A stretch of 21,348 nucleotides of DNA from Spongospora subterranea. Taxonomy: Eukaryota; Endomyxa; Phytomyxea; Plasmodiophorida; Plasmodiophoridae. The DNA is taken from NCBI GenBank assembly GCA_900404475.1, contig OUQQ01000335.1, forward strand, positions 1-21,348, in the 5' to 3' direction. A program made the position numbers and the translations under genes. The notes under the pieces were generated by a model, which had not been told where the DNA came from, searched no databases, and saw nothing but the letters and a program-made list of their open reading frames with translations. This document shows, piece by piece, positions 495 through 20,365 of the stretch. Numbering within the stretch: the first letter of the stretch is position 1; each line of letters begins with the position of its first letter.

Positions 495-1407
495 ATGGCG
501 AGAGGAAAAGCAGGAATCAACAACAAACGAAGAGGACACCGAGACTAACGGCTCGCCAAACACTCAACCGCAACGAACCAACTAACACAGAAACTCGACC
601 TGCTGAAACAATACCAACGGCCCCCACAGCTGATACCAGAGTTCACAGGAACAAATTGGGGAAAGTAGATACAATATTGGTTTATCGGAATAGAACATAC
701 AATGACGTACCCACCAATCAAGCTCAATCGCTCGAGAAAAGGAAGGACCAATTGGCAAAGCACAGATTTGCCTAAGGTTAAAACAAGCACAATAGAAGTA
801 AGTAGCCGCATGCAAGACAACATGAGAAGTCTGGAAAACACTGAATGGACATTGTCGACGGAACATCAGAGCCAAAGCAGTCAAACCTCTTCATCCAGTT
901 TATCAAAGACGAGGGCACTTCACACATCCGATGAAATTGTATCTCCGCAACCTTATGGACATGTATCAAGACATGAGAGTGTTCGAAATCCAGATTGGCG
1001 AAACAGCCCTTGGACGGACTGCTGGAAGCGTACAAGCGAGCGAAACCTGTCATAAGGGCTACACAGAATGTTACATTCGTCAGACTAACCAACGTCCTTC
1101 TTCCGCAACAGAACGAGACGAGATGAGTACTGCAGGTCTGAACACTAATACCAATGGCGAGACAGACGGTATCAATTCGAACACGGAAATGAGGCGGACA
1201 AAATCCAAATTGAAACGAGGTGGTACGAAATCCAAGAACAGCAACGACAACGGCAATAAATACAACAAAGGCCAGTATTGTACACGCTGTAGACGAACGA
1301 ATGAAGAAAGTTGGCCACTTCATCCACACTTGAAGAAGCAATATTGGAACAACCGTTCTATGAACAACACAACTACGACTGACGAGAAGGAACATGAGTT
1401 TACATGA
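495..1407 (+). pseudogene. Ty1/copia gag relic
   Basis: This is a decayed gag region read in at least two frames. Near 630-650 the translation gives a copia gag signature (LIPEFTGTNWGK) followed directly by a stop. Around 931-1010 another frame gives KLYLRNLMDMYQDMRVFE. From 1279 there is a degenerate zinc knuckle of the copia type (CTRCRRTNEESWPLHPHLK) in which the second half has lost its cysteine. The next open frame starts at 1404 and is protease-like, as expected for copia order. The several frame changes and stops mean it cannot make a Gag protein. Gag normally packages element RNA into cytoplasmic particles. Confidence 0.72.
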
Positions 1408-1864
1408 TTCCACAGTACGTCCACCAGTGTTCTCCATCAAAAAGTGCCTATTTAATCGATAGCTTCGCTAACGTCAGCGTGGTACATGATTTAAACTTAC
1501 TTCTCTTACTTCACATTCACAGGTCATTACAGGACCCGATCATGATCACTTGCAGCAACGGCGAGATATCACCTGCATACAGACAAGGATCACTAAAGAT
1601 ACAATCCCAACCACCAGTTATCATTTGCAATGTATTATATCTCCCTGGCCTTAGCAAGACCTTACTTTCCACGAAATTGTGTACTGATCAAGGCTGAATC
1701 GTCGCCATTGACGACGCTCTTCGTATCAAGAATCAAGATGGAAAGGTTGTCGTAGCGGCGCACACGCGCAACGACCTCCACTACATTGTAAATCACATCG
1801 CATCGTTGGTCAACCACGATTCCCACATGAACACCAGACAAAAACAATCAGGGCATTTGCAATC
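1404..1864 (+). pseudogene. Ty1/copia protease and GAG-pre relic
   Basis: An open frame runs from 1404 to a single TGA at 1695-1697 and continues in the same frame beyond it. It has the copia protease landmarks: a LID-S position where the catalytic D-S/T-G triplet should be (here IDSF, the glycine lost), a CSNGE segment, and the diagnostic VLYLPGLSKTLLS. After the TGA, DDALRIKNQDGKV and RNDLHYIV fit the pre-integrase (GAG-pre) domain. Loss of the active-site glycine plus the stop make it inactive. A diverged inverted copy of part of this region lies at 20215-20365. Confidence 0.8.
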
Positions 1865-2897: not shown

Positions 2898-3948
2898 TTA
2901 ATATCGCACCATAGCAAACCAGAGACACGCTTGCGAAACGGCGATGTACATCAGACAGTAGGCGAACGCCATGAAGACTTGGCCAACTATTCGAAGACCC
3001 AATATTGGCGTGAGAATCAGGGTCATGGCCACCTTGCAAATGAATAAGGGTAAAATGCACAATACTGGGAAAGCAATCAGCTTTGACTGATGAGAACCTA
3101 TTGAGCAGGGATCTGATCATACAATATACGATTTGTCAAATATCGCTTACTGCTTAGAAACTGAAAAAACCGAGCTGGAACGCCAGCGATTTGAGGAAAA
3201 GTTTGATTGGGCATAACCACTAACTTTGCTAAAGTATAAATGGACATGAAGACGAAGCCCAAGGTCATCAGTAGTAATCCAGAACCTGGCCGGATTTGCA
3301 AAAGGCAAAAGCCAACACCGGTCAGAGGAACAAAGATCCACGGCAACACTGTCACACAACGATAAACTGCTCCAGATCGTGGGCGATGAACGGATCACTA
3401 ACCCTGCCAGAATGGATTAGAGAGCACGATGATGGCGATGATCGAACCATGGAAGTCAACTGAATACGACATGTGTAAAAGGCCCCCCGACCTAATCATT
3501 GGCGTAATTTGACACATACCGGTGAGAGAAATCAAGGCCAAAAACCAGAGTGGGACAGAACTTCCAGGAACTTGAGACTCATCTGAACAAGGCGTGACGA
3601 ACATTGTGTAGAAATGTTGGAGTCCCTACGTTGGATATTTGGTGTGAAGGCGACCGAGCTGGGCACAATGGTTCGGGTACGGGGCGGATCATGGAGCTGA
3701 ATCTGCTGGCCTGAAAACGTTGTCAAAGGTTTGATGAAGACTGGCTCCATATGAGCTCTTTACCTGTACTGACGACAGAATTATGCACTACATCGATTAC
3801 GCGTTCGTTATCGGAACGGTGTTCAGCTGAATAAGGGATCAAATCGTTGATCGACTGTGCGATTCCATGTGATTATACTTATTAGAACAGCATTGGCTGA
3901 TGATGCGGCAATAACGGCTAATAAACCCAAAATCATCCTGGACTGCAT
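2898..3948 (-). CDS. Array copy 1: four-helix membrane protein, unknown family
   Basis: Model: complement join 2898-3097, 3151-3348, 3403-3459, 3520-3582, 3630-3710, 3764-3854, 3889-3948. The total is 750 nt, 249 aa plus stop. Introns are 47-60 nt, all GT-AG (donors GTAAAG, GTAGGG, GTATGT, GTTAGT, GTAAGC), and the frame closes only with all of them. The N-terminus is a hydrophobic signal-like helix; residues about 127-240 hold four hydrophobic helices, the last containing IVGQVFMAFAYCLMYIAV, the family hallmark. A 34-nt GT...AG stretch (3855-3888) inside exon 1 must also be removed, otherwise a stop follows. Intron 3 (60 nt) has no stop, so retention would stay in frame. No disabling change other than the 34-nt question is seen. 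Function unknown; membrane location inferred. Confidence 0.72.
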
Positions 3949-4634
3949 TGGTACGAAGTCAGCTACGGTAATTTCGGGAACTGATATACCAACGCCCAGT
4001 CCACGGGCAACTGGTCAGGAAAACAATGTGCGCCAAACCTTGGGGAACAATGGTACTCCTATTACGCGTATTACGCGGATTGCGCAATGAGTATTTGTTA
4101 CGGGAACAGCGCGAAGTAGAAGTATTGCGTTGACATCGTTGAGGTTATGCGATGCAAATATTGTTGTGAACGTGCGCAAAACAATTTTTCGGCTGTGATG
4201 CTTGAAATTGACGCTGGCAAGCCACCTTGATAACAACTTAATCATCAGTTTTCACCGAAGACGTTGATCTCTCATAAATTCGTGGTCATCAACATACGCC
4301 ATCTCGACCACCTAATCCTCACGGTGAGGGATTAACCTCCCTGTGCCCGATGCGCATCTCTCACACCCAATTATGTTTTCTCTGGGCAATAGCCAACATG
4401 ACCCATACACACATTGGCCGTCTTCAGATCCAGCCTGTTCACAAACTGGTCGCATGAAATCCGGTAGCACCACGATCGCTGCTTGTGCTGGTGGCAGTAC
4501 CAAACCCGAGTCGAAATTGCACACTGATAATTAGTGCTAAGATTCGATCAGAACATCTTCAAATCATAAAGGATCGGTGCTGTATTGAGTTACCCAACCG
4601 AAAGATTGACATGATGTGCAGTGCAGCTCGCAAT
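3949..4634. other. Spacer between copies 1 and 2
   Basis: This is duplicated spacer sequence that recurs between other copies: a block resembling 'ttgttgtgaacgtgcgc' just before a tRNA-Ser relic (4189-4238), then a stretch with 'cctaatcct' and 'ggtgaggg', then a 'gtagcaccacgatcgctgc' block near 4460-4485. A minus-strand frame (4312-4524) is open and Cys-containing here, but the aligned stretches after other copies are not open in that frame, so I do not call a gene. No clear AATAAA follows copy 2; the position is changed to ATACAG. Confidence 0.55.
4189..4238 (-). pseudogene. tRNA-Ser relic 1
   Basis: The plus strand reads 'tcggctgtgatgcttgaa', then 'gacgctggcaagcca', aligning to the 3' half of the intact tRNA-Ser at 18764-18845 (acceptor 3' strand, T arm, variable arm). 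The B box is mutated and the anticodon stem is lost, so it is not a functional tRNA. It lies in the same relative place in its spacer as the other relics. Confidence 0.6.
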
Positions 4635-5571
4635 TCAGCACAGAAACACATTTGCTGAACGGCGCTGGTCTTCAGACAATAGGCGAACGCCACAAACACT
4701 TGTCCAACAGTACGCGAATAGACTTGGCGAGAGTGGAAGGGTAAAGGCCAAGATGAGAATGAACCAATGTGAAACGGACAGTATTGGGAAAAACATCGAT
4801 TTCGACGAATGGGATCCTATTGAGAATAAATAAGAGATGTGATCATGCAATATACAAGTTGTCATCATCACATTCTCAGTAGCAAACGAAAACCACGAGA
4901 TGGACGAACAGGCTCGCAATCAACATTTTCAATTCGCCAAACAACTAAGTACATATGGACAAAACTACGAAAGTCCAGGTCATGAATTTCAATCCGAGAA
5001 CTGGTTGTATTTGTAAAAGACACAACCCAAGGAACATGAGAGAAATCATCACTATCGCTATCGCTATCGCACAAAGAATGAGATCAATTGGAGGAGATGC
5101 GTAATGGAGCGATCACTACCGTCCAATTGTGGTGTATAGAGTAGAATGTTGCCGAAGAGCGCTCGATGGAAGTCACCTGAAAAGGGTAAGGCGGAGTGAG
5201 CAAATCATTTGGCGTAGTTCGGCGACAGAGCTCATGAACAACAACAATCGTGGAGCAAGATTAGCAGGAACGTGGGACTCACCTGAACACGTCGTGACGA
5301 ACTTTGATTTAGAAATGTTAAATTGCGCACGTTGGGCATTAGGTGTGAGGGCAACATCGCTGGGCAATTAGAGCTGGTTTTGTTGACCAGAAAAACCGCC
5401 GTCAAAGGTTTGATGGGCATAAGGCAATTACTTGTACTGGCGCCAGTATATCTAATATATTGGGCACCTGTTCGCCATCCGGACCGGGATCAGGCGAATA
5501 AAGGGAGATGAATTCATCGATCGACGGTTCAATTCCATGTGATTTTACGTATTGATCACGTTGACCTGCAT
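4635..5571 (-). pseudogene. Array copy 2: pseudogene of the four-helix family
   Basis: The exon order is recognisable: exon 6 about 4635-4816, exon 5 4876-5063, exon 4 5120-5176, exons 3-1 to 5571. It carries several independent lesions. The signal helix is deleted, so the ATG at 5569-5571 runs straight into the exon 1 tail. The exon 3 donor GTATGT is deleted. Exon 5 is 188 nt rather than 198 and hits a TAG (CTTAGTTG). The exon 5 donor is GAATGT instead of GTATGT. Exon 6 has a 2-nt deletion in the loop before the last helix. Exon 4 still has 57 nt and an open frame. It is a dead copy. Confidence 0.85.
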
Positions 5572-5993
5572 TTGGTTACGGATTTTACCAGGCTGGGACG
5601 TTTATGAGTCGGGATTCGGGACGTGACAGGCGGAAAATACGGTATTGTGTGAGACGCAACGTTCTGTGTTCTACGGTATCCCGAACATCAATTTCAAGAG
5701 ACACACACTCAAATGTCTTTTCTAGATTATTCGTCTGACTTTTTTTCAATTTGATTCATCCAGCTACATACCTTGCATTTCTGTCCCAATTTTTGCTTAT
5801 TCCTACTTTATACGATTTGATTGCAAATCCATTGCACCATCAATCAACACAGTTACCGCTTTTGATCATCTCCTCATGTGTTATTTCCTAATGTCTCGGA
5901 TATCGGTCTGCCTGGGGCAGAAACTTTGAACGAACGCGGTCGGGTTCCTCGATTTTCTGCAAAATATTGTTGTCAACGTGCGCCAAACAATCA

Positions 5994-6054
5994 GTCGCCT
6001 GGCCGTGGTTCGACCTGATGCTGGCTATGTCAATTTGGCTTCACGTCAAGCTCC
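5994..6054 (-). pseudogene. tRNA-Ser relic 2
   Basis: This aligns with the intact tRNA-Ser(UGA) over its 3' half: 'gtggttcgacc' matches the B box, 'gctggctatgtcaa' the variable arm, and 'cttcacgtcaagctcc' the anticodon and D side. Beyond 'agctcc' the sequence departs from the tRNA and instead matches the other relics. The acceptor 5' strand is missing, so it is not functional. Confidence 0.65.
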
Positions 6055-6369
6055 ATGGAATGAGGAACTCGAGATTTACATCGACCTTCAATGTTATCGA
6101 AACGTTGATATCTCGAATTTGGTGCTCAAACCCTAAAACGCCATCTCGACCAACCTAACCTTCACGTTAAGGGAATATCCTCCCCGTGTCCATGACTAAG
6201 TTAAGCCAAGGCCATAGCCAACATCAAAAAAACAACATGACAAACTGATCTCATGAAAATCCACTACAGCACGACGATGGCTGTTTATGCTTGTGGCAGT
6301 ACCAATCTGCGCTTCGATATTGTGGCGCGGAAATGAACAGATTCTCCTCAACTTATGACGAATCGATGC

Positions 6370-6375
6370 TTTATT
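6370..6375 (-). terminator. Polyadenylation signal of copy 3 (AATAAA)
   Basis: The plus strand reads 'tttatt', that is AATAAA on the coding strand, beginning 14 nt past the stop codon (6389-6391). The same position after other copies carries AATAAA (copy 6, 15147-15152) or GATAAA (copy 5, 11334-11339; copy 7, 16897-16902), followed by similar 'gcaccgattc' sequence. Conservation across copies supports it. Confidence 0.7.
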
Positions 6376-6388
6376 GATTGAGTTGAGG

Positions 6389-7420
6389 TCACAATTGATC
6401 AATCCAGAAACACAATTGCAACACGGCGATGTACAACAGACTAAAGGCGAACGCCACAAATACTTGGCCAACAATACGATAACCCAGTATTGGCGTAAGA
6501 AGCAGGGTAAAGGCCAATTTGAGAATGGCAAAGGGTGAAGCGGCCAATATTGGGAAACCCAACCATTTTGACGGATGGGATCCTATTGAAAATAATAAGA
6601 GATCTAATAATGCAACATACGCTGTTGTCATCATCACTTACTCATTAGCAAACGAAAACCACGAGATGGACGAACACGGTTTTGATGAACATCTTCACGC
6701 CAGATAACGAACTCATTAAAAGTACATATGGACAGTACCACGAAGCTCAAGGCCATGAGTATCAATCCGATAACTGGTTGAATTTGCAAAAGGCAAAAGC
6801 CAAGCGACATAATGGGAATCATTACTATCAATATCGCTGTCACACGAACAATGAGATAAGTTCCATAAATTGAAGGAGATGTGCAATGAACCGATCACTA
6901 ACCCGTCCAACTTGACCTATAGCGCAACATGTTCTCGACCAGCGCACGATGTTGTTCCCCTAAATACGACATGATTAAGGACGAGTGACCAAGTCATGTG
7001 GCGTAATTTGACACATACTGGCGCTAGAGGACAGCAACAAGCGCGGACCAAAATCGGCAGGAACTTGGGACTCATCTGAACAAATCGTGACGAACATTGT
7101 GATAGAAATGCTGGATCCGTACGTTGGGTATCAGGTGCGAGGGCAACCGAGCTGGGCACGATGGCTCGGGCATCTCCTAAAAAATCGCCGACAGAAGTTT
7201 GATGAATATAGTGAGAACCGTTTTAGGTGCAATAATTACTTGTACTGGCAACGGGATTATCCAATACATCTATTAAATGGACCGCCAGGTCATCGGGACG
7301 GGGATCAGTTGAATCGGGGATTACATTATTGATCAACTGTGTGATTTGATTTGCCAGAGCAGCATTGGCTGATAATGCTGCAATAGCGGCGATCAAACCC
7401 AGGATTGCCCTGAACTGCAT
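6389..7420 (-). CDS. Array copy 3: intact four-helix membrane protein, unknown family
   Basis: This is the best copy. Model: complement join 6389-6582, 6642-6836, 6903-6959, 7019-7075, 7123-7176, 7240-7420; 738 nt, 245 aa. All five introns are GT-AG (47-66 nt; donors GTAATT, GTACGG, GTATGT, GTTAGT, GTAAGT). The start MQFRAILGLIAAIAALSANA looks like a signal peptide or first helix (1-20). Residues 21-116 are polar, in small exons. Helices lie at about 118-136, 138-161, 189-212 and 216-241, the last with YRIVGQVFVAFAFSLLYIAV. The loop between helices 2 and 3 is rich in Arg/Lys, suggesting it faces the cytosol. It lacks the 34-nt stretch of the other copies. I do not recognise the family; no CCG motif of tetraspanins is present. 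Confidence 0.82.
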
Positions 7421-7767
7421 TGGATCACGGACTTTGATGACAGTGCCGGATTGTTTTCCGAGTTGTTACTTGGGAACAAGGTCACGGCGTGAAACATCAT
7501 GCTGTGCCGACTACTGCCTAGGCCAAACCCCGCAATATTCCTTGGTCTGACAGTCAGGAACCAGGGGCAGATTCGCACACCCTTGTGGCTTTTCCAGCGT
7601 GTTCATGTCATTGTTTCCAAACCAGTTCATCGATCATATACTTTCCATGTCTAAGACCGTGTTATTTGGGTTTGTCAGACCCTTACGCTGTCGGTGCCAC
7701 CATTAAGTTACCCATCTACCGCATTCGATCATCTCCTCATGCGGTATTTGCCTAAGATCAACATTAC
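7421..7767. other. 5' flank of copy 3, spacer truncated
   Basis: This holds the shared upstream motif 'ttcgatcatctcctcatg' (7724-7741). Just past it (about 7768) the sequence jumps into exon 5 of copy 4, so the tRNA relic, spacer and exon 6 expected between copies 3 and 4 have been deleted. No promoter motif can be named with confidence. Confidence 0.6.
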
Positions 7768-7880
7768 GATTGCGCCAGACAACAACCTCACCTCCCCCCA
7801 GCCTATAAATGAGAACCGGACAACTGGTCGAATTTGCGAAGAACAAATCCAACGAGAATGATAGGAATCTACAAGGTGTG
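7768..7880 (-). pseudogene. Array copy 4, exon 5 fragment
   Basis: 'gcgccagacaac' and then 'gagaaccggacaactggtcg' align with exon 5 of copies 2, 3 and 5 (compare 'ccgagaactggttgaa' at 11780). About 45 nt in the middle of the exon is missing, and exon 6 is absent. The rest of this copy (exons 1-3) lies at 10200-10643, so about 2.3 kb of foreign sequence now splits it. Confidence 0.7.
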
Positions 7881-8060
7881 TAAGGCCAACATTACATTCC
7901 TTTATGTTTTCGAAAGATTCTTTGTGTCATGAATTGTATCAATATCCCGCCTAATACAACTTTGTACGGTTCGTGTTGCCGTCAAGAGTAGTTCTAGATG
8001 AGGATTAATTGGTTGATTAAAATTAGGTATACTCTTTCAGTTCAGGGCACAAACGAATTG
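7881..8060. other. Left part of the insertion in copy 4
   Basis: AT-rich sequence, no gene or repeat identified. It follows the point where similarity to the array ends (about 7880). Confidence 0.4.
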
Positions 8061-8472
8061 TTATAGGTCATCACTTTTAGTTGGGTTTAGCGTATCCAAA
8101 AGGGTCTGTATAAAAGGATTGTTAAATTTGCTATGGCCAGCCCATTTGAATGTTTCGGCATAAAAGATTACATCGATCGGGATTACATTTAATACTTCCT
8201 TCGCCATTTCGGGAAGGACTTTGCTGAGCACATGATATTTGTCATTGGAGAATCTTTGTTTGCAGAAGTCGGCGTCCATGCTCCTTGTTTGGGCCATGAA
8301 TATCAAGGCGTGGGTTTGTCGCTTGATAGCTCGTCTGGCAAAGCTGATTGCCAGGAAGTCTGCTATAACACGTTTTGTGTAGGGTCCGGCTGACTATTAG
8401 ATTGGCAATAGTAAACAGAACTGGTTTTATTAGGTCGCTTGAGATCGGTTCAAGAAAGGATAAAAAGGTCAT
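8061..8472 (-). pseudogene. Unassigned protein-coding fragment inside the copy 4 insertion
   Basis: A minus-strand frame is open from a possible acceptor (CTAATAG, just above 8393) to a TAA at 8061-8063: 110 codons with RVIADFLAISFARRAIKRQ, ALIFMAQTRSMDADFCKQRF and EMAKEVLNVIPIDVIFYAE. Just upstream, another frame (from an ATG at 8470-8472) reads EPISSDLIKPVLFTIANLIV and joins smoothly if one frameshift near 8360 is allowed. The composition is that of a helical soluble protein. It is either a terminal exon or a once-frameshifted gene relic carried in by the insertion. I do not recognise it. No poly-A tract marks it as a processed copy. Confidence 0.45.
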
Positions 8473-8814
8473 TTGAGATTTAAACGCAATTGGACGATAG
8501 TTTCAAGAAAATCATCATGAAAGATCAATCGGGAATAAGATTTCGACCCTGAATTTCCGAGGATTTTTTAAACCAAAATAAAACTGGAGGCCACATCAGG
8601 ATGGGGAGCTTTCACAAATGATTGTGCATTGTTTATAGTTTTGTCCTACCGGGTAGGGTAAACAATTTGCCAACTTGCATAAACAAAATCGATCTGTATT
8701 CGATAACAGGTGAACTGGCCCTCTATTTTTTCCCACAACCAATAGGATTTCATATTCGCCGACGCAAAGACAGAGGAACAATAGGATAACGATTGACTGC
8801 TCTGAGAGCGACGA

Positions 8815-9296
8815 AGCCGCTCTGTATCAGCAGAACACTTACGTGAAGGTGGTGCTGGACTGTTGGAATGGGCTCCTGAGGTAATTCTATCAGTTGCAGT
8901 GCCACAGGGGGTGTCCAACGCCTGCGTGTTGTGCCACTTTGTCAAAACAACTCTCATTCTGAGGACCTCCAGCGCTGTCGCAATCGAATCGAGGCAGTTT
9001 CCAGCGTGGTGCGTCCCATGGTTGGCAAAAGGTTGGCGGTGGACTATATTATGATGATAAAGGACACACATTTGTAGTCCTTTGTGAAAACCGCCTGATT
9101 GGCCAAGATCAGACCACGACGGGTACTTTGCAAAGTGCCTCGATTCGTTTCCGACAGCGCTGGAGGACCTCAGAGGGAGAGTTGTTTTAAACAGCGGCAC
9201 AACACGCAGCTGTGGCGCTTCAACTGATAGAATAGTCTTCGAGAGCCCATTCTAACAATCCAGCACCACTAAGCGTTCTGCTGATACAGAGCGGCT
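8815..9296. repeat. Foldback (large inverted repeat, arms about 165-185 nt)
   Basis: The arm at 8815-9000, starting 'agccgctctgtatcagcag', is the diverged reverse complement of 9132-9296, ending 'ctgctgatacagagcggct'. The arms share 'gaggacctccagcgctgtcg' and 'cgaatcgaggca'. The spacer is about 130 nt. Small indels between the arms show the duplication is not recent. Long frames cross it on both strands but they mirror each other and look like a by-product. It could be a foldback element or an inverted duplication of one gene fragment. Confidence 0.88.
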
Positions 9297-10199
9297 TACA
9301 ACAGACTCGCCGCGAGATCCCAAGTGTGATCGCCCCTTCTGCACAGAGACGACATCCCATGATGAACAGCACCCATCCCCTTGTTGGGATTGTTCATCTG
9401 GGAAAACACCATCGTGTCTACTTTTCTGAAGCGAAGTCGTAGCAAATCATCGTCCATAGATAGAATCGAGTACCCTTCGACATAGCCGTTCTCTGCCGAT
9501 TTATCTTGAACTAGCTGAAAAGCAGCAGCGACATCTCTGCCGTGCTTTATTGGGGCTGTCCAGGTTGATCCACCAGAACCAGACCGATTCCCCTATAGAG
9601 GTCAATGTTGACGATATCGACAAATTTCTTTTTGAACAGATGTAGAAGGACAATAGCAGTTTGATCTTCACGAACTGGACAATCTCAACAGAAGATACGC
9701 GGTCGTTGATGTGACTGTTAAAGCAGAACCAAACCATGGTTATAATGCGCGATATGGTTTAATTATTTCAGAAGCGCCTGTCTCTTCCTCTACGACCAAA
9801 CATTGCCTGCAGCAAGTTTTGTCGAACAAGTTCGATCTCAGATCGAGCCTGCCCGAGCAGATACCGTTCAACGTTGTCAACGTCGATTTCAAACTCTAGG
9901 CTCTTGAGGTGGTGATCAATTATCACAAGAAACTCCATCATTGTGATCCCCGACAGCATCAATATCAGCTAGAACTGTAGCCAGATGGTCATCGTAATCA
10001 GGGTGTTGTCATCGGAAAACACGACTAAGCCGACAGCGATCATCAATTATTCCTAGACAATCTCAGACCTATTCGAGCGATTAATTCGACTAAGTTCAAA
10101 AGGATTTACTTCAAATACATGTCGAGTTGGTTATTCCTGAATTGAGAGATTTTTAAAGCACCAAATCGTATAGGATTAACATTCTGGCCCGCAATTATA
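9297..10199. other. Right part of the copy 4 insertion, nothing assigned
   Basis: No recognised gene. Short open frames occur on both strands around 9501-9962; the minus frame 9768-9962 (with HHLKSLEFEIDVDNVERYL) has protein-like composition and could be a mobile-element relic. No motif is decisive. Similarity to the array resumes at about 10200. Confidence 0.35.
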
Positions 10200-10643
10200 C
10201 AGGGCGGCTGCTTTGTAAATTGACACATACTGGCGACAGAGCTCAAAGACAAGAACAATCGTGGAGCAGGATCGGCAGGAACTTGGGACTCTCCTAAACA
10301 AGTCGTGACGAAACCAATAGTGATGTTGGATTCCGTATGTTGGGTATTTGATGTGAGGGCGACCGCAACGGAAACTGGTTCTGCTGACCTGAAAACCGCT
10401 GTTGAATGGTCGGTGTCATATGAGGCATTTACTTGTAATGGACACAGAATTATCCAATACAGTTATTACATGGAAGAACTCATGGCCATCGGGAGGGGGA
10501 TTAGCTGAATACGGGACTAAATTATTGCTGGATTGTGGAATTCAATGGGATTATACTTCTTAGACTCGTCTTAGAAGTATAATCCCATTGGCTGATAATG
10601 CTGCAATACCAGCTATCAAACCCAGGAGCACCCCGAACTTCAT
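10200..10643 (-). pseudogene. Array copy 4, exons 1-3
   Basis: The ATG at 10641-10643 opens MKFGVLLGLIAGIAALSAN, the family's signal-like helix. A perfect-looking hairpin (10543-10590) then replaces the sequence after the signal and brings a stop. Exon 3 and its donor GTATGT are recognisable at about 10225; the exon 2 donor is changed (ATACGG). The rest of the gene is missing except for the exon 5 piece at 7768-7880. Dead copy. Confidence 0.8.
10543..10590. repeat. Short hairpin inside copy 4 exon 1
   Basis: The arms 10543-10565 (starting 'caatgggattatacttc') and 10568-10590 pair over 23 positions with one mismatch around a 2-nt loop. It sits exactly where the other copies carry the 34-nt stretch after the signal helix, and part of the arm ('attatactt') resembles that stretch, so it may come from an inverted duplication of it. 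Confidence 0.9.
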
Positions 10644-11006
10644 TTAATTTCGAATTTCCCACGACAGCGATGAGACTGTTTTTGAGTTGTCACGAACGTG
10701 AGTGGCAATATTCCCTCAATCAGACTCTGTTTCCCAGGTCGTTTCTTTTCCATTCCCGTTCATCCATCTGTACTTCATTTCTGGCCCCGTTTACTCGTTC
10801 CAACTACTCCTATATGATTTGACGGATCTGTGTCATCCTGCGACTGCATTTGATCGTGTTATTCTAAGTACTCACTATTCAGTGATGCCGATATTGCCTT
10901 GGTCCAGTAGCATTGGTCAGGCGAGTCAGGCCGGCAAACGAAAGTGTTCCGGCTCCTCGACCTCTTGCAATGCTAAGCATTCGTGGAGGCGTCCGTGAAA
11001 TAGTCA

Positions 11007-11062
11007 GTCGGCTGGCTCTCGACCTCACCCTGCAAAGCCAGCTTGATTTCAAGTCAAGCTCC
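11007..11062 (-). pseudogene. tRNA-Ser relic 3
   Basis: This is the best-preserved relic. 'cttgatttcaagtcaagctcc' keeps the whole anticodon stem-loop with the UGA anticodon, and 'ctgcaaagccag' the variable arm, but the T arm is mutated ('ctctcgacctca') and everything past 'agctcc', which should form the D arm and acceptor 5' strand, is replaced. Not expected to fold or be transcribed as a tRNA. Confidence 0.75.
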
Positions 11063-11333
11063 ATGGTTTAGATCGACATCAGAAGTTTCCCCAGTCGTTG
11101 GTGTTTCGTGATTTGTGCTTATAAACAATCCCCTTCTCGCTACCGATCCTTCTCGGTGAGGGAACAACATCGTGTGCTTGTTCAGGCACAGCAGCAGTTC
11201 CTGTGTTGACAGACAAGAAAACTGATTGCATGAAATTCAGAAGGAAAAGGATAGATTTTTTTTTGTTGTGGCTTGTAATCAACTGCACATATCTGGAACT
11301 GGATTTCCTTCCAGATCATAAAAGAATCGGTGC

Positions 11334-11339
11334 TTTATC
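11334..11339 (-). terminator. Polyadenylation signal of copy 5 (GATAAA variant)
   Basis: GATAAA lies 54 nt past the stop of copy 5, in the same sequence context (followed by GCACCGATTC) as the AATAAA of copy 3. It is a common metazoan variant hexamer. Confidence 0.5.
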
Positions 11340-11393
11340 GAAAGTATAGTCAAAGTTGGGATACCCAACAGAAAGATTTGATATGCAATTCAG

Positions 11394-12460
11394 TTAGGGT
11401 AATACCCCAGCAATCGAGAAACACAATTGCAGAACGGCGATGTACATCAGGCAATAGGCGAGCCCCACAAATACTTGACCAGCCACACGGTAAAGCGGGC
11501 TTGGCGACAACAGCAGGAGCGGGGCCAAGTCGGAAACAACTTCGAGTGAACAGGCCAATATTGGTAAACTCATCCACCTTGACGGACGGGGACCTATTAA
11601 AAATATATAAACGGTCTGATCATGCAATAACTTACGATTTGTCATCACATACTGATTAGCAAACCACAAATTCCAGTTGGAGGAACAAGCTCGCGACCAA
11701 CATTCTGGGTGCGCCAGACAACGAACTCACCTAAAGTGCACAAAGACAGCAACACGAAGCTCCAGGTCATGAGTAGTAATCCGAGAACTGGTTGAACTTG
11801 CAAAAGGCAAAAGCCAATGACCATGACAGGAAGCATTACTATCGGTATCGCTGTCACAAGAAGAATGAGATAAGTTCCAGAAATTAAAGGAAATGTGCAA
11901 TGAACCGATCACTAACGCGTCCAAATTGACCTATAGCGCAGCATGCTCTCGACCAGCTCACGATGTAATTCCCCTGAATACGACATGATTAAGGCCTAGT
12001 GACCAATTCATTTTGGCGGAAATTGACACATACTGGCGACAGAGGACAGCAACAAGCGCGGACCAAGATCGGCAGGAACTTGAGACTCAGCTGAACAAGT
12101 CGTGACGAACTTTCAATAAAAATGTTGAATCCTTACGTTGGGTATTAGGTGCGAGGGCGACCGAGATGGCTCGGGTACGACGCCGAGCATTGAACTGGTT
12201 CCGCTGACCTGAAAACCGCCGTCAAAAGCTTGATCAAGTGACGTTGGTTTCATATGAGGTATTTACTTGTACTGGCGACAGAATCATTTGATATATCCAC
12301 TATATGGGACACCTGTTCGCCATCGGGACTGGGATCAGCTGAATGGGGAATCAAGTCATTAACCGAATGTGCAATTCCATGTGATGATACTTATTAGAAC
12401 AGCATTGGCTGATAAGGCGGCAATAACGGCTAGGAAACCCAGGATCATCCTGAACTGCAT
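11394..12460 (-). CDS. Array copy 5: four-helix membrane protein, nearly intact
   Basis: Model: complement join 11394-11593, 11653-11850, 11917-11973, 12034-12090, 12137-12208, 12267-12366, 12401-12460; 744 nt, 247 aa. Introns are 46-66 nt (donors GTAAAT, GTAAGG, GTATGT, GTTAGT, GTATGT; acceptors TTTTCAG, TGTTCAG, ATTCAG, GTGACAG, TTAATAG). The signal helix is MQFRMILGFLAVIAALSANA. The C-terminal half has four helices and ends with VAGQVFVGLAYCLMYIAVLQ. The 34-nt stretch at 12367-12400 ends ACAT rather than ACAG; if that stretch is an intron its acceptor is mutated here and translation stops soon after the signal. Everything downstream is open. Function unknown. Confidence 0.62.
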
Positions 12461-12631
12461 TTGATGACGAATTTTAGTGACAGGTTCTGGGTATGAAGTT
12501 TAAAGAAAAGGTCCGCCATACCAAATTGTGACCTGAACACACAATTAGGGCGTCAACACATAACGATTGCGGCGCCAATACCAACCATTTGGGATTACAA
12601 AAAATTAAAATACACTGAGCGGGAAGGCACA
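12461..12631. other. 5' flank of copy 5 and left edge of a 1.9-kb insertion
   Basis: Similarity to the flank of copy 7 ('gacaggttctggg' here, 'gacagttctggg' at 18006) stops at about 12495. From there to about 14385 the sequence is unrelated to the array. No gene in this short piece. Confidence 0.5.
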
Positions 12632-12840
12632 CCAACACACTAGAAATGGGACTTAAACCTACTAGAAATGGGTCCTCAACACAATAGAAATGGGACTTCA
12701 AACACAATAGAAATGGGTCCTCAACACAATAGAAATGGGACTTCAAACACACTAGAAATGGGGCTTGGACACAATAGAAATGGGACTTCAAACACACTAG
12801 AAATGGGGCTTGGACACAATAGAAATGGGCCCTACACACA
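12632..12840. repeat. Minisatellite, 22-23-nt unit with 45-bp period
   Basis: Nine copies of a core 'tagaaatggg' are spaced 22 or 23 nt apart, alternating between versions followed by 'acttcaaac', 'tcctcaac' and 'gcttgg'. Because the two lengths alternate, the higher-order period is 45 bp (15 codons), which keeps both strands open and yields spurious repetitive ORFs such as the minus frame with HFYCV repeats. Confidence 0.92.
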
Positions 12841-12869
12841 GATTTGCGGAGGTCGCCTCGACATCATAA

Positions 12870-13115
12870 ATAATAGTTGATCTCGATTCCGAAAATGATG
12901 TCGCAGATCATGATTGGATCGCAATCGCAGTTGATATCAACGAGGGAGTAGCGTTGAAACAAATACGAGCAGCCTCATCAACGCACACAATGTTTCCACG
13001 AAGGATCGATTTCCATCAAATGAGGCGACGTTACGCCATATGCACTTCAGTTCGGTGGTTCGCAGAGGTTGATGGAGAGCCTAATCTCTACTGTGGTGCT
13101 ATACGCCATCAATAA
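12870..13115 (+). pseudogene. Unassigned coding-like frame
   Basis: 81 codons are open between TAA (12867-12869) and TAA (13113-13115), with no ATG near the start. The composition is protein-like: DLDSENDVADHDWIAIAVDI, then MFPRRIDFHQMRRRYAICTS and VRWFAEVDGEPNLYCG. It could be an exon or retroelement fragment. It lies in the 1.9-kb insertion, next to gag-like sequence on the other strand. I do not recognise it. Confidence 0.4.
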
Positions 13116-13348
13116 ATGGGGAACAGTACAGTGTGTTGCATTACCGACATCACTGGGTAAAAGTCTTTTGTTACCGCCATCCCGCGCATTTTTGCTGAGT
13201 GTGTTTGTGGTACCCCCTTAACGACATCACCCACCGTCTTGTTCTCCGGTCCGAAATAACCGTCTTGTCGATTCAACCCGACCAAGGCATTCAAGTGCGC
13301 CCCCAATGCAGCTACACTTTCTCCTGGATTTCGGCCAATAAAACTCAT
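13109..13348 (-). pseudogene. Possible retrotransposon gag fragment
   Basis: The minus frame from the ATG at 13346-13348 reads MSFIGRNPGESVAALGAHLN, then ALVGLNRQDGYFGPENKTVG and DVVKGVP. The PGESV-x(n)-L pattern and the spacing to the following hydrophobic-charged segment resemble the capsid of LTR retrotransposon gag proteins, but this is only a resemblance. Part of it (VGLNRQDGY) recurs on the plus strand at about 13451-13480, so the fragment was inverted and duplicated. Confidence 0.35.
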
Positions 13349-13484
13349 ATTCGCAAACTTATCAAACGAGTGTCAGCATTCAGCATGCCATTGGGTGTCG
13401 GCAAACATTACATCGTGATCCGAAATCGAGGAGAAAAGTGAGAATGCCATGGTCGGGTTGAATCGACAAGACGGTTATTACGGA
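13251..13484. repeat. Inverted repeat of the gag-like segment
   Basis: 13251-13293 ('aataaccgtcttgtcgattc' within it) is the reverse complement of 13442-13484 with three or so mismatches. Both arms encode VGLNRQDGY followed by F/Y-G, once per strand. The arms are separated by about 150 nt. Confidence 0.9.
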
Positions 13485-13976
13485 GCGGAGAACAGTAAAC
13501 AACAAGACGGTTTCCTACCGAAGTCATTGCGCTCGAAACCACTCTCTCAAGTTGCGCATGTCGGCGCTTTCAAGTTTTGTTTGTAGAGGTTTCAAAAGCG
13601 CTTTTGAAATGATCAAAGCGACAGTTGAGGCGTGATACATGGCTCTTTCTCAATACGAGAAATGAGCAATTCTTTGAGTGCAGTGCTGATCCACTGCAGG
13701 GTTGCCGATTCACAAACCGATGTCGTGCAGTTGTGCGCTCTGCCAATACAATCAATACAGCTAATTTTTATACTCTTGAGTTCAGCACACGAAAAGTAAC
13801 TTTGCCATCTAAATTAGCTTCCTTGCGATGTCTGAATATATTGGAGAGAAACAATCAGCACAACGCTGCAGAGTTTTAGTCTTGAGTTGGTTTATCAAAT
13901 ACAACATCGAGCAGTTCAGAAATTCTCTCCAGTTCGGAAACTGTCCGAATTCGCAACGAATTTGGCTTTGCATGTA
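13485..13976. other. Gene-free part of the insertion, 20-bp palindrome
   Basis: The only clear structure is a perfect palindrome TTTCAAAAGCGCTTTTGAAA at 13590-13609. Short open frames on both strands show no motif. Confidence 0.5.
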
Positions 13977-14294
13977 CTAGTCTTCGCCGCTTCTTCCTTT
14001 CGTATTTCGAGCAAGGAATTCTTGGAGTAATTGATTTGGAGAAGTATCCTGTGCCCCTCCAGCGTGTTTTGCTTTCGCGATTCGATTCAACAAAGCTTCC
14101 AATAAAATCATTTTTTTTTAGGTTTTTGGGGTGCCTCTTCCTACTGGCTCTTTGATCGTGAACTGCTTCAATTCAGGGATCGACCACGGCCGCTTTGGAT
14201 CGTTCTCGGAAGCATTCTTGATCATGGCAAAAGGATCAGAGTTGTGATCACGTTTGGACGATACAACTAGCCGGAGTTGCAAAGCGGCACAATG
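13977..14294 (-). pseudogene. Unassigned reading frame with one stop
   Basis: One minus-strand frame runs from a TAA (14295-14297) to a TAG (13977-13979), broken only by a TAA at 14118-14120 that abuts a run of A's. Before the stop: DPFAMIKNASENDPKRPWSI and PELKQFTIKEPVGRGTPKT. After it: MILLEALLNRIAKAKHAGGA and NQLLQEFLARNTKGRSGED. The two halves have similar charged, helical composition, so this is likely one protein fragment with one nonsense change. I do not recognise it; a mobile-element origin is plausible given the neighbours. Confidence 0.42.
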
Positions 14295-14763
14295 TTAAAA
14301 GCCTTTCACGACTTGGCTCCAGAATTTGAAAGCGCTTTAGACAAAGGCATATACGGCGTCGATCTGCCATGTGTGCAGTGCCAGGCCAAATACGTAATAC
14401 ATTCTGTGCGACGCAACAATCTGTGCAGTACGATATTCCGAACATCAAGTTCAACAACAGTCGACAGATTCACATAGACACAGACTTCCCTTTTTATTGC
14501 TTTTTTTTCAAACCAATTCATCCATCAAAGCTTTCCATTCTGTCCCATTTTTACTGTTTGTTCATAAACCCTGTACAAAGGGTTTGATTGCGGATCTGTT
14601 GCATCATTATTTACCTCAGCTACCGCAAATGTTTTGCCTAGAATCTCGGGATGATAGTCTGCCTCGTGCAGTAGCTTTGTTAGCGCGTTACATTGGAGTC
14701 CAAACGCTATCAGGATCCTGATTCTTGCCAAAAAAAATTGTGAACGTGCGCCAAACGATCGGT

Positions 14764-14813
14764 CGTTCGGCGCCTGACGCTGGCATCGCCAATTTGTCTT
14801 GACGTCAAGCTCC
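14764..14813 (-). pseudogene. tRNA-Ser relic 4
   Basis: 'gacgctggcatcgccaa' and 'gtcttgacgtcaagctcc' align with the variable and anticodon arms of the intact tRNA-Ser. The T arm is shortened and has lost the B box. It is preceded by 'ttgtgaacgtgcgccaaacg', a block also found before relics 1 and 2. Confidence 0.6.
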
Positions 14814-15146
14814 ATTGATGAGGAGCTCGAGATTTATAGTCGGCATCCGGTTTCACCGAAAACGTTGATGTCTCGTGAATACCTAATCCTGACGGTGAGG
14901 GAACAGTCTCCCTGTACCCGATATTGTGCATCTTCAGGCCAAACTAAGTTTAATTTGGGCAATATGACCCGTACACACATCTTCCGTCTTCAGATCCAGC
15001 TGCAATTTCTCTGCTGACAAACTGATTTGCTCAAAAATCCAGTAGCACCACGCTCGCCTCTGCTGCTTGTGGCAGTACCAAAACTGTTCTCTGATATGTA
15101 GAGCCGAATTTGAACATAATCTCCTCAGATTTTAAGAAAACGGTGT

Positions 15147-15152
15147 TTTATT
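15147..15152 (-). terminator. Polyadenylation signal of copy 6 (AATAAA)
   Basis: AATAAA on the minus strand begins 52 nt past the stop at 15204-15206, followed by ACACCG, as in the other copies. Confidence 0.6.
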
Positions 15153-15203
15153 ACGACACCAGCAGAAATACTGACATAATGTGCACTTAAGTCAACGTCG
15201 CAC

Positions 15204-16250
15204 TTAAACAAACCAGACTAATATTTGCTGAACGGCGATGAACATCATAAAAAAGGCGACGGCCACATAAATTTGGGCAACAATACGATAGAACAGGTTT
15301 GGCGTGAAAAGCAGGATCAGGGCCATTTTGAGAATGAATACAGGTGAAACGGCCATTATTGGAAAAACCATCCATTTTGACGAATGGGGACCTATTGAGC
15401 ACAAACAAAGGATCTGATTATGCAATACACGATTTGTCATCATCACATACTCGTTAGCAAACGAAAGATACGAGCGGGAGGATTAGGGTCTCGAGCAAGA
15501 CTTCCATAGTTGCGCCACACAAAGAACTTACCAAAGGTAGTTACGGACAGGACCACGAAGCTCCAGATCAACAATATCAATCCGAACTCTGGTAGAAATA
15601 GCAAAGAAAAAAAGGCGACCAACATAAGAGGAATTATCACTATCGGTAAAACTGCCACACAGCAATGAAAACCAAGGATACGTGCAATGAACCGATTCAC
15701 TAACGGTCAAAGATTGGTGTCAAAATCAGAACGTTGTCGACGAGCACACGATGGAAGGCAACTGAATACGACGCTAGTAAGGCGGTGTGACCAAACATGT
15801 GGCGTAATTCAACACATACTGGTGATAGAGTTCAACAACAACAACCAGCGTGGACCAAGATCAGCAGGAACTGGAGACTCTTCTGAACAAGTCGAGATGA
15901 ACATTGAGTAGAAATGTTAAATTCCGTACGCTGGGTATTAGGTGAGAGGGCGACCGAGCTGGGCGCGATGGTTTGGATAGGAGGCGAATCATCGAAATGG
16001 ATTTGTTGACCTGAAAACCGTCGTCAAGGATTGTATGAATAGTCATATCATGTATTTACTTGAACTGGACACAGAAGTCTCCAATATATCTAGTATATGG
16101 GACGCCCGTTCGTTATCAGGACTGGGATCAGCTGTGGGAACAAATTATTGATCCTCTGTGCAATTTTTATGTGATTGTACTTATTAGAACAGCATTGGCT
16201 GATAAGGCGGCAATAACGGCTATTAACGCCAAGACCATCCTGAACTGCAT
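15204..16250 (-). CDS. Array copy 6: four-helix membrane protein, exon 1 lesion
   Basis: Model: complement join 15204-15391, 15451-15651, 15705-15761, 15820-15882, 15930-16010, 16060-16250. Exons 2-6 are fully open with GT-AG introns of 47-59 nt, and exon 4 is again 57 nt. The C-terminal helices include LPIVIIPLMLVAFFSLLF and IVAQIYVAVAFFMMFIAVQQ; the protein lacks several Cys of its relatives. Exon 1 starts MQFRMVLALIAVIAALSANA but the following stretch is 35 nt rather than 34, and the exon tail has lost 4 nt (TTGTTCCCACAG against TTGATCCCTTATTCAG), so I find no splice choice that keeps the frame. Probably a recent pseudogene, unless an upstream alternative first exon is used. Confidence 0.6.
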
Positions 16251-16556
16251 CTAATTTGAAATTCCAAGAGAGCGATGGGACGGTTTTCTGGGTAGGGACA
16301 AGGAATAATGTCAGAAATTAATTCAACCTGGCGCAGTTTCTCTGATGGTCCAACCCATCACGTCCCCGATGATGGCGGATCTCTGGCACCTTCATCCGGT
16401 TTCATCCGGCTTCAGTAGTGCATTTGGTCATCCTCATACGCGGAGGATGACGATTTGGCTGGCCGATAGCACTGGTCATGCGAGTCACGCCGGCCAACGA
16501 AAGCGTTCCGGCTCCTCGATTTCTTGCGACTCCAAGTATTCTTAACAAAAGAATCA

Positions 16557-16612
16557 GTTGGCGGTGACATTCGAAGTCACGCTTGTTAAGCCAATTGATT
16601 CAAGGCAAGGTC
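16557..16612 (-). pseudogene. tRNA-Ser relic 5
   Basis: The T arm is intact as a 5-bp stem and 7-nt loop ('gtgacattcgaagtcac'), but the anticodon stem is disrupted ('ccaattgattcaaggcaagg') and the D arm and acceptor 5' strand are missing. It aligns with the other relics as 'ccaaggtcc / agctcc' and then 'atttacatcgacatc'. Confidence 0.65.
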
Positions 16613-16896
16613 CACGATTTACATCGACATCAGATGACGATGCTGTCTCATGATGTTGTTCTCATAATCATACGTCGTTTAAACGCTCGCGGTTAGGCAA
16701 ATAGCCTCGCCGTGCCCGAGGTACACACATTAGCCTTGTTCAGAACCAGATGCAATTTCTTCGTTGACAAGCGTGACAAACTGTTCGTATGAAAATCCCA
16801 GTACAATGGGTTTTCTCTCCTTGTGGCAGAAACAAACTGCACATACCTGGAGGTGGATAATGAACAGAGTCCTTTAAGATGATGAAGGATACGTGC

Positions 16897-16902
16897 TTTA
16901 TC
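16897..16902 (-). terminator. Polyadenylation signal of copy 7 (GATAAA variant)
   Basis: GATAAA, then GCACGTATCC, lies 64 nt past the stop at 16967-16969, in the same context as in copies 3 and 5. Confidence 0.45.
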
Positions 16903-16966
16903 GAGAATAGAGTCAAAATTGGGATACCCAGCAGCAATATTGATATGATACGCATATGTGTTAGGG

Positions 16967-17986
16967 TTATATCACAGCAATCCAGAAACACAACTGCAGG
17001 ACGGCGATGTACATCAGACAATAGGAGAACGCCATGGATACTTGGCCAACCGCACGGTAAAGTAGACTTGGCGAGAACAGCAAAGTCAGGGCCAACCTGA
17101 AAATGAAAAGGGGTGAAAGTGCCAATATGGGGAAACCCATCCATTTTGACGTATGGGAACCTATTCATCATAAGTAAGAAATCTGATCATGCAATATACG
17201 ATATGTCATCAGCACTCACTCATTAGAAAACGAAATATACGAGATGATTGAGAAAGCTCTCGATTATCATTCTCACTATGCCACACAACGAACTCTGCTA
17301 GAGTGTACATGGACAGGACCACGAAGCCCCACGCCATAAGTCGTAATCCCAGAAGTGGTTGTATTTGTAAAAGGCACAATCCAAGGAACATGAGAGGAAT
17401 CATCACTATCGGTATCGCTGTCACACAAATGATTAGAATAAAGAACATGTGCAATGAACCGATCACGAACGCCTCCAACTTGACCCGTAAAGCTTGATGT
17501 TGTCGATGAGTGCACGATTTAAGTTCCCTGAATACGGATTGCGTATGGCTTGGCCAAATTATTTGGCGAGATTGACACATACTGGCGACAGAGCTCAACG
17601 ACAGCAACAAGCGTGGAGATATGTTGGCAGGAACTTGGATCTCTAAGAAATCCCAGGATTCTGTACGTTCGGTATTTGGTGTGAATGAGACAAGGTTGGG
17701 CACAATGGGTCGGGTTACTAGGGTACGAGGCAGATCATCGAACTGGCCTGAAAACCGCCGTCAAAGTTGATGATTATAGTGATGGTTTCAAATGAAGTAC
17801 TTACTTGTATTGGCGACAGAATTATCTAATATATCTATTAGATGGGACACCTGTTCGCCATCGGGACTGGGATCAGCTAAATGAGGAATGAATTCATTGA
17901 TCGACTGTGCAATTCCATGTGATGATACTTATTAGAGCAGCATTCGCTGATAAGGCGGCAATAACGGCTAGGAAACCCAGGATCAT
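16967..17986 (-). CDS. Array copy 7: four-helix membrane protein with an exonised intron
   Basis: Model: complement join 16967-17160, 17220-17417, 17471-17527, 17583-17747, 17805-17904, 17939-17986; 762 nt, 253 aa. What is intron 2 elsewhere (46-47 nt) has shrunk to 24 nt here (17643-17666) and reads in frame, adding eight residues (about RTESWDFL), so exons 2 and 3 form one 165-nt exon. The usual ATGCAG start is gone and translation would begin at the internal ATG (17984-17986), giving MILGFLAVIAALSANA. The 34-nt stretch (17905-17938) starts GC rather than GT. The exon 4 donor is GTTCGT. Helices include IPIVMIPLMFLGLCLLQ and YCLMYIAVLQLCFWI. It is the most upstream copy, next to the intact tRNA. 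Confidence 0.65.
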
Positions 17987-18763
17987 CCTGAAACGGATTT
18001 TAGCGACAGTTCTGGGACGTTTTTCGAGTTTTCGTTTTTGGACCGCGTGACCGGAATAGGTTTACGGCGTGGATCGGTGATGCCGTGAGTGGCCATATAC
18101 GGAATACTTGCACGGTCTTCCAAACATTCATTCAACAACCAGGCGCAGTTTCACATTGTATGTTTGTTCTAGGTTTCAGTATTCGTGTCGTTTCTTTCCA
18201 AATGGATCTCTAACCCCGTTTAGTTGCTTCTTTACAGTTTGATGGCGGATCCGTGGCATAATCCTCGCATTTGATGCAGCTGGTAGTGCATTTGACCATC
18301 TCGTCATGTCTGGATATTCATCCAATGATTATGGTCTGCTTGGTCCAGTAGCATTGTGCGCCGGCGAACGAAAGCCAGAATCAATGGATCGTGCAAACAA
18401 GCGAGCAGATCTGCGAACCTCATGAGTTGGCGTTATTCTCCGTTTCCTGATTCCGACGACGCTCCGGATTAACTTTTGGGAACTGACAACACAACCTCGT
18501 TTTCACTTGCTTTTGCTCATCAGAAATCTTCGCAAAATAGATAACCAACCGTTGTTTGGCTAACAGCTAAACACGCCCATTGCTGTGAACCATAAAAGAC
18601 TTCTGAGAAATATCAAACTACACCTGCACACGTACTCGCGATCATCATCAATCTTTGCAAAAAAACTTAAAAAGTTTTTGGATCGATTAAGTTTCAATGG
18701 AGACACAGGTTTCTGAGTACATTTTATTTGCACAACGCTTCCCAAAACTTTAACAAAACAATA
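17987..18763. other. Upstream flank of copy 7
   Basis: This has the duplicated flank blocks: 'gacagttctggg' at about 18006, 'gatggcggatccgtggca' at 18241-18258, 'gcatttgaccatctcgtcatg' near 18288-18308, and 'ttggtccagtagcattg' at about 18340. From about 18380 it no longer resembles other spacers. 18500-18760 is AT-rich with no gene; the tRNA's TTTT terminator falls at its end. Confidence 0.55.
18757..18760 (-). terminator. Pol III terminator of tRNA-Ser
   Basis: On the minus strand the tRNA is followed by TATTGTTTTG; the TTTT run just after the 3' end is the standard RNA polymerase III stop. Coordinates are approximate to 2 nt. Confidence 0.7.
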
Positions 18764-18845
18764 GTCGGCTGTGAGGTTCGAACTCACGCTGGCATAGCCA
18801 ACTTGATTTCAAGTCAAGCTCCTTAGACCACTCGGACAAACCGAC
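18764..18845 (-). tRNA. tRNA-Ser(UGA), intact
   Basis: 82 nt on the minus strand. The acceptor stem GTCGGTT pairs with AGCCGAC (one G-U). The D arm is TCC..GGA; the anticodon arm is CTTGA-CTTGAAA-TCAAG with anticodon TGA; the variable arm is long (class II, TTGGCTATGCCAGC); the T arm is GTGAG-TTCGAAC-CTCAC. The B box GAGTTCGAACCTC is intact. No intron and no encoded CCA, as usual for eukaryotes. A TTTT run 5 nt past the 3' end on the coding strand is a Pol III terminator. It reads UCA and wobble serine codons. It is the only intact member of the six tRNA-Ser-like sequences spread through the array. Confidence 0.95.
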
Positions 18846-20214: not shown

Positions 20215-20365
20215 GGTGCCGGAAACGATGTGATTTACAATTTAGTGGAGGTCGTTGTGCTTGTGCGCCATTACGATAATTTTTCCAACTTGATTCTTGA
20301 TACGACGCAGCCTTGATCAGTACACACTTTCGTAGCTAGTAAGGTCTTGGTAATGACAGGGACAT
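20215..20365 (-). pseudogene. Ty1/copia protease/GAG-pre fragment, inverted copy
   Basis: The reverse complement matches 1640-1810 over most of its length: the 'aagaccttact' and 'tgtactgatcaaggctg' block, then 'tatcaagaatcaa', then 'aacgacctccac' and 'gtaaatcacatcg'. This is the same family as the left-hand relic, in opposite orientation, with a deletion after the 'gatcaaggctg' part. Confidence 0.85.

What the first reader, a model, noticed from the sequence alone, without database searches (positions are those of the whole stretch)
2898..17986. Tandem array of seven copies of an unrecognised six-exon gene for a four-helix membrane protein
Comparing copies on the minus strand yields one gene model with shared intron phases, a constant 57-nt exon 4, a 195-201-nt exon 5 in readable copies and a hallmark C-terminal helix (GQVFxAFxYCLMYIAV type). 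No single ORF reveals it because the exons are 54-200 nt. The frame closes only when every short intron is removed, in copies 1, 3, 5 and 7 independently, which is strong internal evidence. I cannot place the family, so this may be a lineage-specific, expanding membrane protein family.
Basis: partly seen in the sequence, partly recalled or inferred. Interest (0 to 1): 0.85.

Follow-up and report, generated by a model that had tools for sequence, protein, structure and literature searches.

The report
Tandem membrane-protein genes of Spongospora
A stretch of the genome of the potato powdery-scab parasite carries seven side-by-side copies, five readable and two broken, of a fast-changing membrane-protein gene for which no relative outside this organism was found.

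Summary
The array is real. On the minus strand, 17986 to 2898, lie seven homologous copies: five with complete reading frames (c1, c3, c5, c6, c7) and two broken (c2, c4); an eighth lies on contig C372. All introns in the models are phase 1. Spliced c5 is identical, from residue 5 on (237 aa), to CRZ00969.1, a hypothetical protein of Spongospora subterranea, a plasmodiophorid parasite of potato. If, as I infer, that record comes from the de novo gall transcriptome, it is RNA support for the six c5 introns. Exon 1 looks like a signal peptide; exons 6-7 encode about four hydrophobic helices. No Pfam, NCBIfam, PDB-sequence or fold match is credible; word-limited searches of 5.8 billion proteins gave no other relative. 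Frames are kept (about 33 stops expected without constraint, none seen in the six chosen copies), yet dN, dS and intron divergence are close. tRNA-Ser relics follow five copies, so the duplicated unit was gene plus tRNA fragment. Best reading: a lineage-specific, birth-and-death family of secretory-pathway membrane proteins; a host-interface role is only inferred.

The parts
2898..3948 (-). copy c1, 7 exons: 3948-3879, 3826-3764, 3710-3630, 3582-3520, 3459-3403, 3348-3151, 3097-2898; 243 aa
4625..5571 (-). copy c2, broken: exon segments E1, E2, E4, E6, E7 differ from c5 by lengths that are not multiples of 3; introns 1, 2, 4 and 6 lack GT or AG at the aligned ends
   Evidence: described only, not mended
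6389..7420 (-). copy c3, 6 exons: 7420-7240 (reads through former intron 1), 7176-7123, 7075-7019, 6959-6903, 6836-6642, 6582-6389; 245 aa
10215..10643 (-). copy c4, broken: a 48-bp palindrome (10543-10590) at the end of exon 1; similarity to the other copies ends at about exon 4
11394..12460 (-). copy c5, 7 exons: 12460-12391, 12338-12267, 12208-12137, 12090-12034, 11973-11917, 11850-11653, 11593-11394; 241 aa; identical to CRZ00969.1 from residue 5 on
15204..16250 (-). copy c6, 7 exons: 16250-16181, 16131-16060, 16010-15930, 15882-15820, 15761-15705, 15651-15451, 15391-15204; 243 aa
16967..17986 (-). copy c7, exons 17986-17929 (start at the second Met), 17876-17805, 17747-17667, 17642-17583, 17527-17471, 17417-17220, 17160-16967; 239 aa; intron 3 shrunk to 24 nt, open in frame, probably retained (then 247 aa)
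18763..18845 (-). intact tRNA-Ser (anticodon TGA) at the upstream end of the array
16542..16613 (-). tRNA-Ser relic 354 nt after the c7 stop
14774..14818 (-). tRNA-Ser relic 386 nt after the c6 stop
11006..11062 (-). tRNA-Ser relic 332 nt after the c5 stop
5985..6059 (-). tRNA-Ser relic 330 nt after the c3 stop
4177..4241 (-). tRNA-Ser relic 384 nt after the end of the c2 match (4625)

Best explanation
A lineage-specific, tandemly duplicated gene family of Spongospora subterranea encodes secretory-pathway multi-spanning membrane proteins of about 240-250 aa. Exon 1 is a signal peptide (ending SANA), exons 2-5 a variable, mostly hydrophilic part of about 85 residues, exons 6 and 7 about two hydrophobic helices each. 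The duplicated unit was gene plus about 350 nt plus a tRNA-Ser fragment; unequal exchange beside the tRNA gene made the array, and repeat insertions, loss (c2, c4) and partial gene conversion then reshaped it. Shown: array, gene structure, kept frames, relic tRNAs, near-equal dN, dS and intron divergence. Inferred: that exon 1 is a cleaved signal peptide, that c5 is transcribed in potato root galls, how the array arose, and that the proteins sit in a membrane at the parasite-host boundary, where loose, possibly diversifying, constraint lets paralogues vary.
For: Spliced c5 equals CRZ00969.1 over 237 aa. Schwelm 2015 deposits a Trinity de novo S. subterranea transcriptome as HACM01000001-HACM01012732 (passages), from potato root galls (table in PMC12883290); that CRZ00969.1 belongs to it is my inference from the number range. 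Six copies open end to end, introns phase 1. Exon length differences from c5 in E2-E6: 15 of 15 multiples of 3; introns 6 of 19 (hand count; Fisher p 3.9e-5). About 33 nonsense changes expected without constraint, 0 in the six copies. SANA-ending hydrophobic first exon in 6 of 6 and hydrophobic stretches in exons 6-7 of 6 of 6; helices in the model. Relic tRNA-Ser pieces 330-386 nt after 5 of 7 copies. Mosaic tracts: c3-c5 90% from E4 to the start of E6, c3-C372 87% in E7, permutation p 0.001 each, best possible with 1000 shuffles, uncorrected for 15 pairs.
Against: No expression, localisation or function data for any copy but c5, and for c5 only by inference. Adaptive diversification is not shown: omega 1.05 does not differ from 1, pooled pN is a little below pS (95% CI of the difference -0.088 to -0.004) and in no exon group above it. 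M2a beats M1a (2 dlnL 13.7, p 0.001), but conversion tracts can cause that and I ran no simulation control; only 3 sites have posterior over 0.9. The structure model is weak (pLDDT 68.4, pTM 0.36) with 0 of 41 fold matches at E <= 0.001. c1 has further hydrophobic stretches at 83-118, so four helices is not uniform. By eye, the charges give no clean topology.
Confidence: 0.6

Rival explanations
1. A decaying family: one copy (c5) is functional, the others drift neutrally and are young pseudogenes that happen still to be open.
For: dN close to dS and to intron divergence; omega 1.05; two of seven copies already broken; only c5 has a matching public protein.
Against: Six copies at pairwise dS 0.27-0.66 stay open where about 33 nonsense changes would be expected on the tree, and exon length changes keep the frame while most intron ones do not. 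The six were chosen for being readable, and two splice choices were made partly to keep the frame, so the argument is weakest for terminal branches.
Confidence: 0.2
2. A host-interface family under true diversifying selection (conserved signal peptide, diversifying mature part), sensed by or acting on the plant.
For: E1-2 most conserved and below intron divergence; E5-6 pN 0.380 exceeds pooled intron divergence 0.298 (95% CI of the difference 0.040 to 0.129); M2a favoured; the parasite is an obligate biotroph.
Against: pS is also raised in E5-6 (0.428), so the rate there may reflect tract history rather than selection; multi-spanning proteins are unusual as secreted effectors (recalled).
Confidence: 0.15
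3. Cargo or part of a transposable element.
For: Copia-like and foldback-like pieces surround and interrupt the array.
Against: The one answered DNA search found one place outside the array (a lower bound); conserved introns and relic tRNAs in register argue for segmental tandem duplication.
Confidence: 0.03

Closest known systems
CRZ00969.1 hypothetical protein, Spongospora subterranea
   Same: identical to spliced c5 from residue 5 to the end, 237 aa
   Different: a single record named only 'hypothetical protein', without Pfam domain; the listing says nothing of the array, the paralogues or the gene structure
Decaprenyl-phosphate phosphoribosyltransferase (PDB 8j8j, 8j8k; NCBIfam NF008976)
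   Same: profile hit over the helices: E 3.3e-5 (8j8j) in the PDB, 7.1e-5 for one of six members in NCBIfam
   Different: covers only helices and the loop between them; the second PDB entry scores E 0.072; the chain's ND..D...D-like stretch faces our variable loop without it; treated as a composition match
Clustered multi-gene membrane-protein families of other parasites, such as the Plasmodium 2TM families (recalled, not tested)
   Same: signal-peptide exon, variable membrane proteins in gene clusters
   Different: no sequence relation tested; another lineage

Membership tests
Family of CRZ00969.1 | homology over the whole protein | tested here: met
   100% (c5), 44% (C372), 41% (c1), 95-98% of the query covered
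Pfam families | score above the curated cut-off | tested here: not met
   best of six members E 0.025, 14.9 bits against a cut-off of 25
NCBIfam NF008976 (decaprenyl-phosphate phosphoribosyltransferase) | score above the curated cut-off | tested here: inconclusive
   one of six members at E 7.1e-5; the answer for the alignment did not show bits or cut-off
UbiA-type prenyltransferases | Asp-rich motif (recalled as ND..D...D) | tested here: not met
   the chain's stretch with that pattern aligns to a variable loop, and no such motif is invariant in the six proteins
UbiA-type prenyltransferases | fold | tested here: inconclusive
   weak model; 0 of 41 PDB fold matches at E <= 0.001
Plasmodiophorid secretome as filtered in PMC12503489 | signal peptide and no transmembrane domain | tested here: not met
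   hydrophobic stretches after the first exon, by hydropathy only; the filter is from a passage of the paper
Expressed multi-gene family | transcripts from more than one copy | not tested
   no RNA reads at hand

The most novel reading that the evidence does not exclude
An orphan Spongospora or plasmodiophorid family of surface or interface membrane proteins that diversifies by tandem duplication, partial gene conversion and in-frame intron retention (c3 intron 1; probably c7 intron 3), of a kind that a secretome screen discarding proteins with transmembrane helices would not see.
Probability: 0.3. Interest if true: 0.6.

Novelty: new member of a known kind. Interest (0 to 1): 0.42.

Why it matters
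About half of the Spongospora proteins in UniProt were still uncharacterised in June 2025 (PMC12883290), and the secretome screen in PMC12503489 removes proteins with transmembrane domains (passage), so a family like this would not appear in it. If the copies are made at the boundary between parasite and potato cell, they would be a handle on a surface that is hard to study in a parasite that cannot be cultured without its host. The array also shows introns turning into coding sequence in single paralogues.

Tried and rejected
Internal repeat (exon 6 against exon 7), suggested by mis-alignments: hhalign probability 3%, rejected. UbiA-type enzyme: rejected as a composition match. Transposable-element cargo: not supported. 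Fold search: nothing at E <= 0.001. Positive selection as a proven fact: not claimed. The open frame 17760-17209 of c7 runs through introns 3-5 but reads exon 5 in another frame, so I take it as chance (and my reading). Organism by rRNA search: not completed. Papers: five searches, judged from the listings only; those showed 20 of 25, 12 of 17,898 and 8 of 441 papers; none of the listed titles names this family, and 'CRZ00969' gave 0 papers.
Full report
What is there. The window is the whole contig C544 of an unnamed 20.6-Mb, 679-contig assembly. A DNA search with copy c3 found eight places, c3 itself included: seven in the window and one on contig C372 (locus L007), at 66-100% identity (a lower bound). 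Repeat search and self-comparison show the same copies on the minus strand. Alignment of six readable copies (five in the window and the C372 one; the broken c2 and c4 left out) shows exons bounded by GT and AG at homologous places.

Gene model. c1, c5, c6 and c7 have seven exons and c3 six; the C372 copy has seven. Every internal exon boundary is phase 1. Lengths are 243 (c1), 245 (c3), 241 (c5), 243 (c6), 239 (c7) and 252 aa (C372). In c3 its donor and acceptor are both lost and 42 nt are read through in frame. In c7 intron 3 is only 24 nt, open and in frame, and is probably retained. I read both as introns turned into coding sequence in single paralogues. The C372 intron-5 acceptor was chosen partly for keeping the frame.

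Organism and RNA support. A profile of the six proteins, searched against 5.8 billion proteins (only the 7,997 candidates sharing most words were scored), returns one protein at E <= 0.001: CRZ00969.1, hypothetical protein, Spongospora subterranea. It equals spliced c5 from residue 5 to the last residue. Two of the more divergent copies, C372 and c1, searched alone at E <= 10, also return only this protein (1,916 and 1,650 candidates). Schwelm et al. 2015 (PMC4471660, passages) assembled S. subterranea transcripts de novo with Trinity and deposited HACM01000001-HACM01012732; PMC12883290 (passages, and part 1 of 2 of one section) gives potato root galls as the source. That CRZ00969.1 is one of these is an inference; if so, the six c5 introns have cDNA support.

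Protein. Exon 1 encodes a hydrophobic stretch ending SANA in 6 of 6 proteins, read by eye as a signal peptide; no predictor was run. Hydropathy windows above 1.6 cover this stretch and the greater part of exons 6-7 in 6 of 6; the first two helices merge into one stretch in c3 and c6, and c1 has further hydrophobic stretches at 83-118. AlphaFold2 on CRZ00969.1 with five exon-7 rows gives helices at 106-124, 126-155, 180-199 (broken) and 204-232 of that protein, but mean pLDDT is 68.4 and pTM 0.36, and Foldseek finds 0 of 41 listed PDB matches at E <= 0.001. Pfam scans of the six members give nothing near a cut-off. One NCBIfam prenyltransferase model hits one of six members at 7.1e-5, and the PDB profile search hits the same kind of enzyme at 3.3e-5, with its sister entry at 0.072, over helices and a loop in which our proteins lack the chain's Asp-rich stretch. 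I treat this as composition.

Selection. Nei-Gojobori dN/dS over 15 pairs runs from 0.56 to 1.08, dS from 0.27 to 0.66. Pooled over pairs, pN is 0.297, pS 0.342 and trimmed introns 0.298; pN minus pS has a 95% bootstrap interval of -0.088 to -0.004. My own codon-model code, on 244 codon columns, gives omega 1.05 (lnL -3764.85 against -3765.00 for omega 1), M1a -3757.37 and M2a -3750.54 with 23% of sites at omega 2.2 and 3 sites above 0.9 posterior (p 0.001); it was not checked against another program or by simulation. Frames are nevertheless kept: about 974 substitutions on the tree would give about 33 stops if unconstrained, and there are none in the six copies chosen for being open. Exon length differences from c5 are multiples of three in 15 of 15 cases for exons 2-6, intron ones in 6 of 19 (my hand count; Fisher p 3.9e-5; exons 1 and 7 left out, cases not independent, models chosen to be open). 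Exons 1-2 lie below the introns in pN and exons 5-6 above (interval of the difference 0.040 to 0.129), but pS is raised in exons 5-6 too (0.428). A shuffle test for mosaic tracts gives p <= 0.01 in 5 of 15 pairs and p above 0.05 in 10; the clearest are c3-c5 (90% from E4 to the start of E6) and c3-C372 (87% in E7), both 0.001. This points to partial gene conversion. So the proteins are kept as proteins, loosely constrained in sequence, with at most suggestive evidence for diversifying selection.

How the array arose. An intact tRNA-Ser lies upstream of c7 (18845-18763). Pieces of it follow the ends of c7, c6, c5, c3 and c2 at 330-386 nt (5 of 7 copies; none was found after c1 or the truncated c4, and in the C372 locus only a 14-nt match at E 0.49). 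The matches begin 18-28 nt into the tRNA, so its 5' quarter to third is not recognisable. The duplicated unit was thus gene plus tRNA fragment; unequal exchange as the cause is inference. The longer gaps between c3 and c4 and between c5 and c6 hold palindromic and tandem-repeat material.

Function. There is no direct evidence. For an obligate biotroph that lives inside plant cells (established knowledge), a loosely constrained tandem family with a signal-peptide-like first exon and several membrane helices most simply belongs to the parasite's surface or endomembrane system; I put about one in three on a role at the host boundary.

Noticed in passing
window 53-284, 2134-2335, 8814-9297: Three long near-palindromes (89%, 72%, 71%), foldback- or MITE-like. 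2113-2359 also matches the miRNA-precursor model MIR2630 at 70.6 bits, well below its gathering score of 144, presumably only for being a hairpin.
   Followed up: partly
window 1398-1697 (+) and 20226-20365: Copia-like Pol fragment (Pfam Pol_BBD, E 2.2e-5, 25.1 bits against a cut-off of 27); 1639-1800 recurs in inverted orientation at 20226-20365, 75% identical.
   Followed up: partly
window 12633-12840: Tandem repeat with a step of 22-23 and 45 bp between c5 and c6.
   Followed up: no
window 10543-10590: 48-bp palindrome at the end of exon 1 of the broken copy c4.
   Followed up: partly
L007 650-800: The C372 locus also holds a long hairpin whose arms contain GGGGGTCTGACAAC and its inverse, about 700 nt from the eighth gene copy (read by eye).
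   Followed up: no
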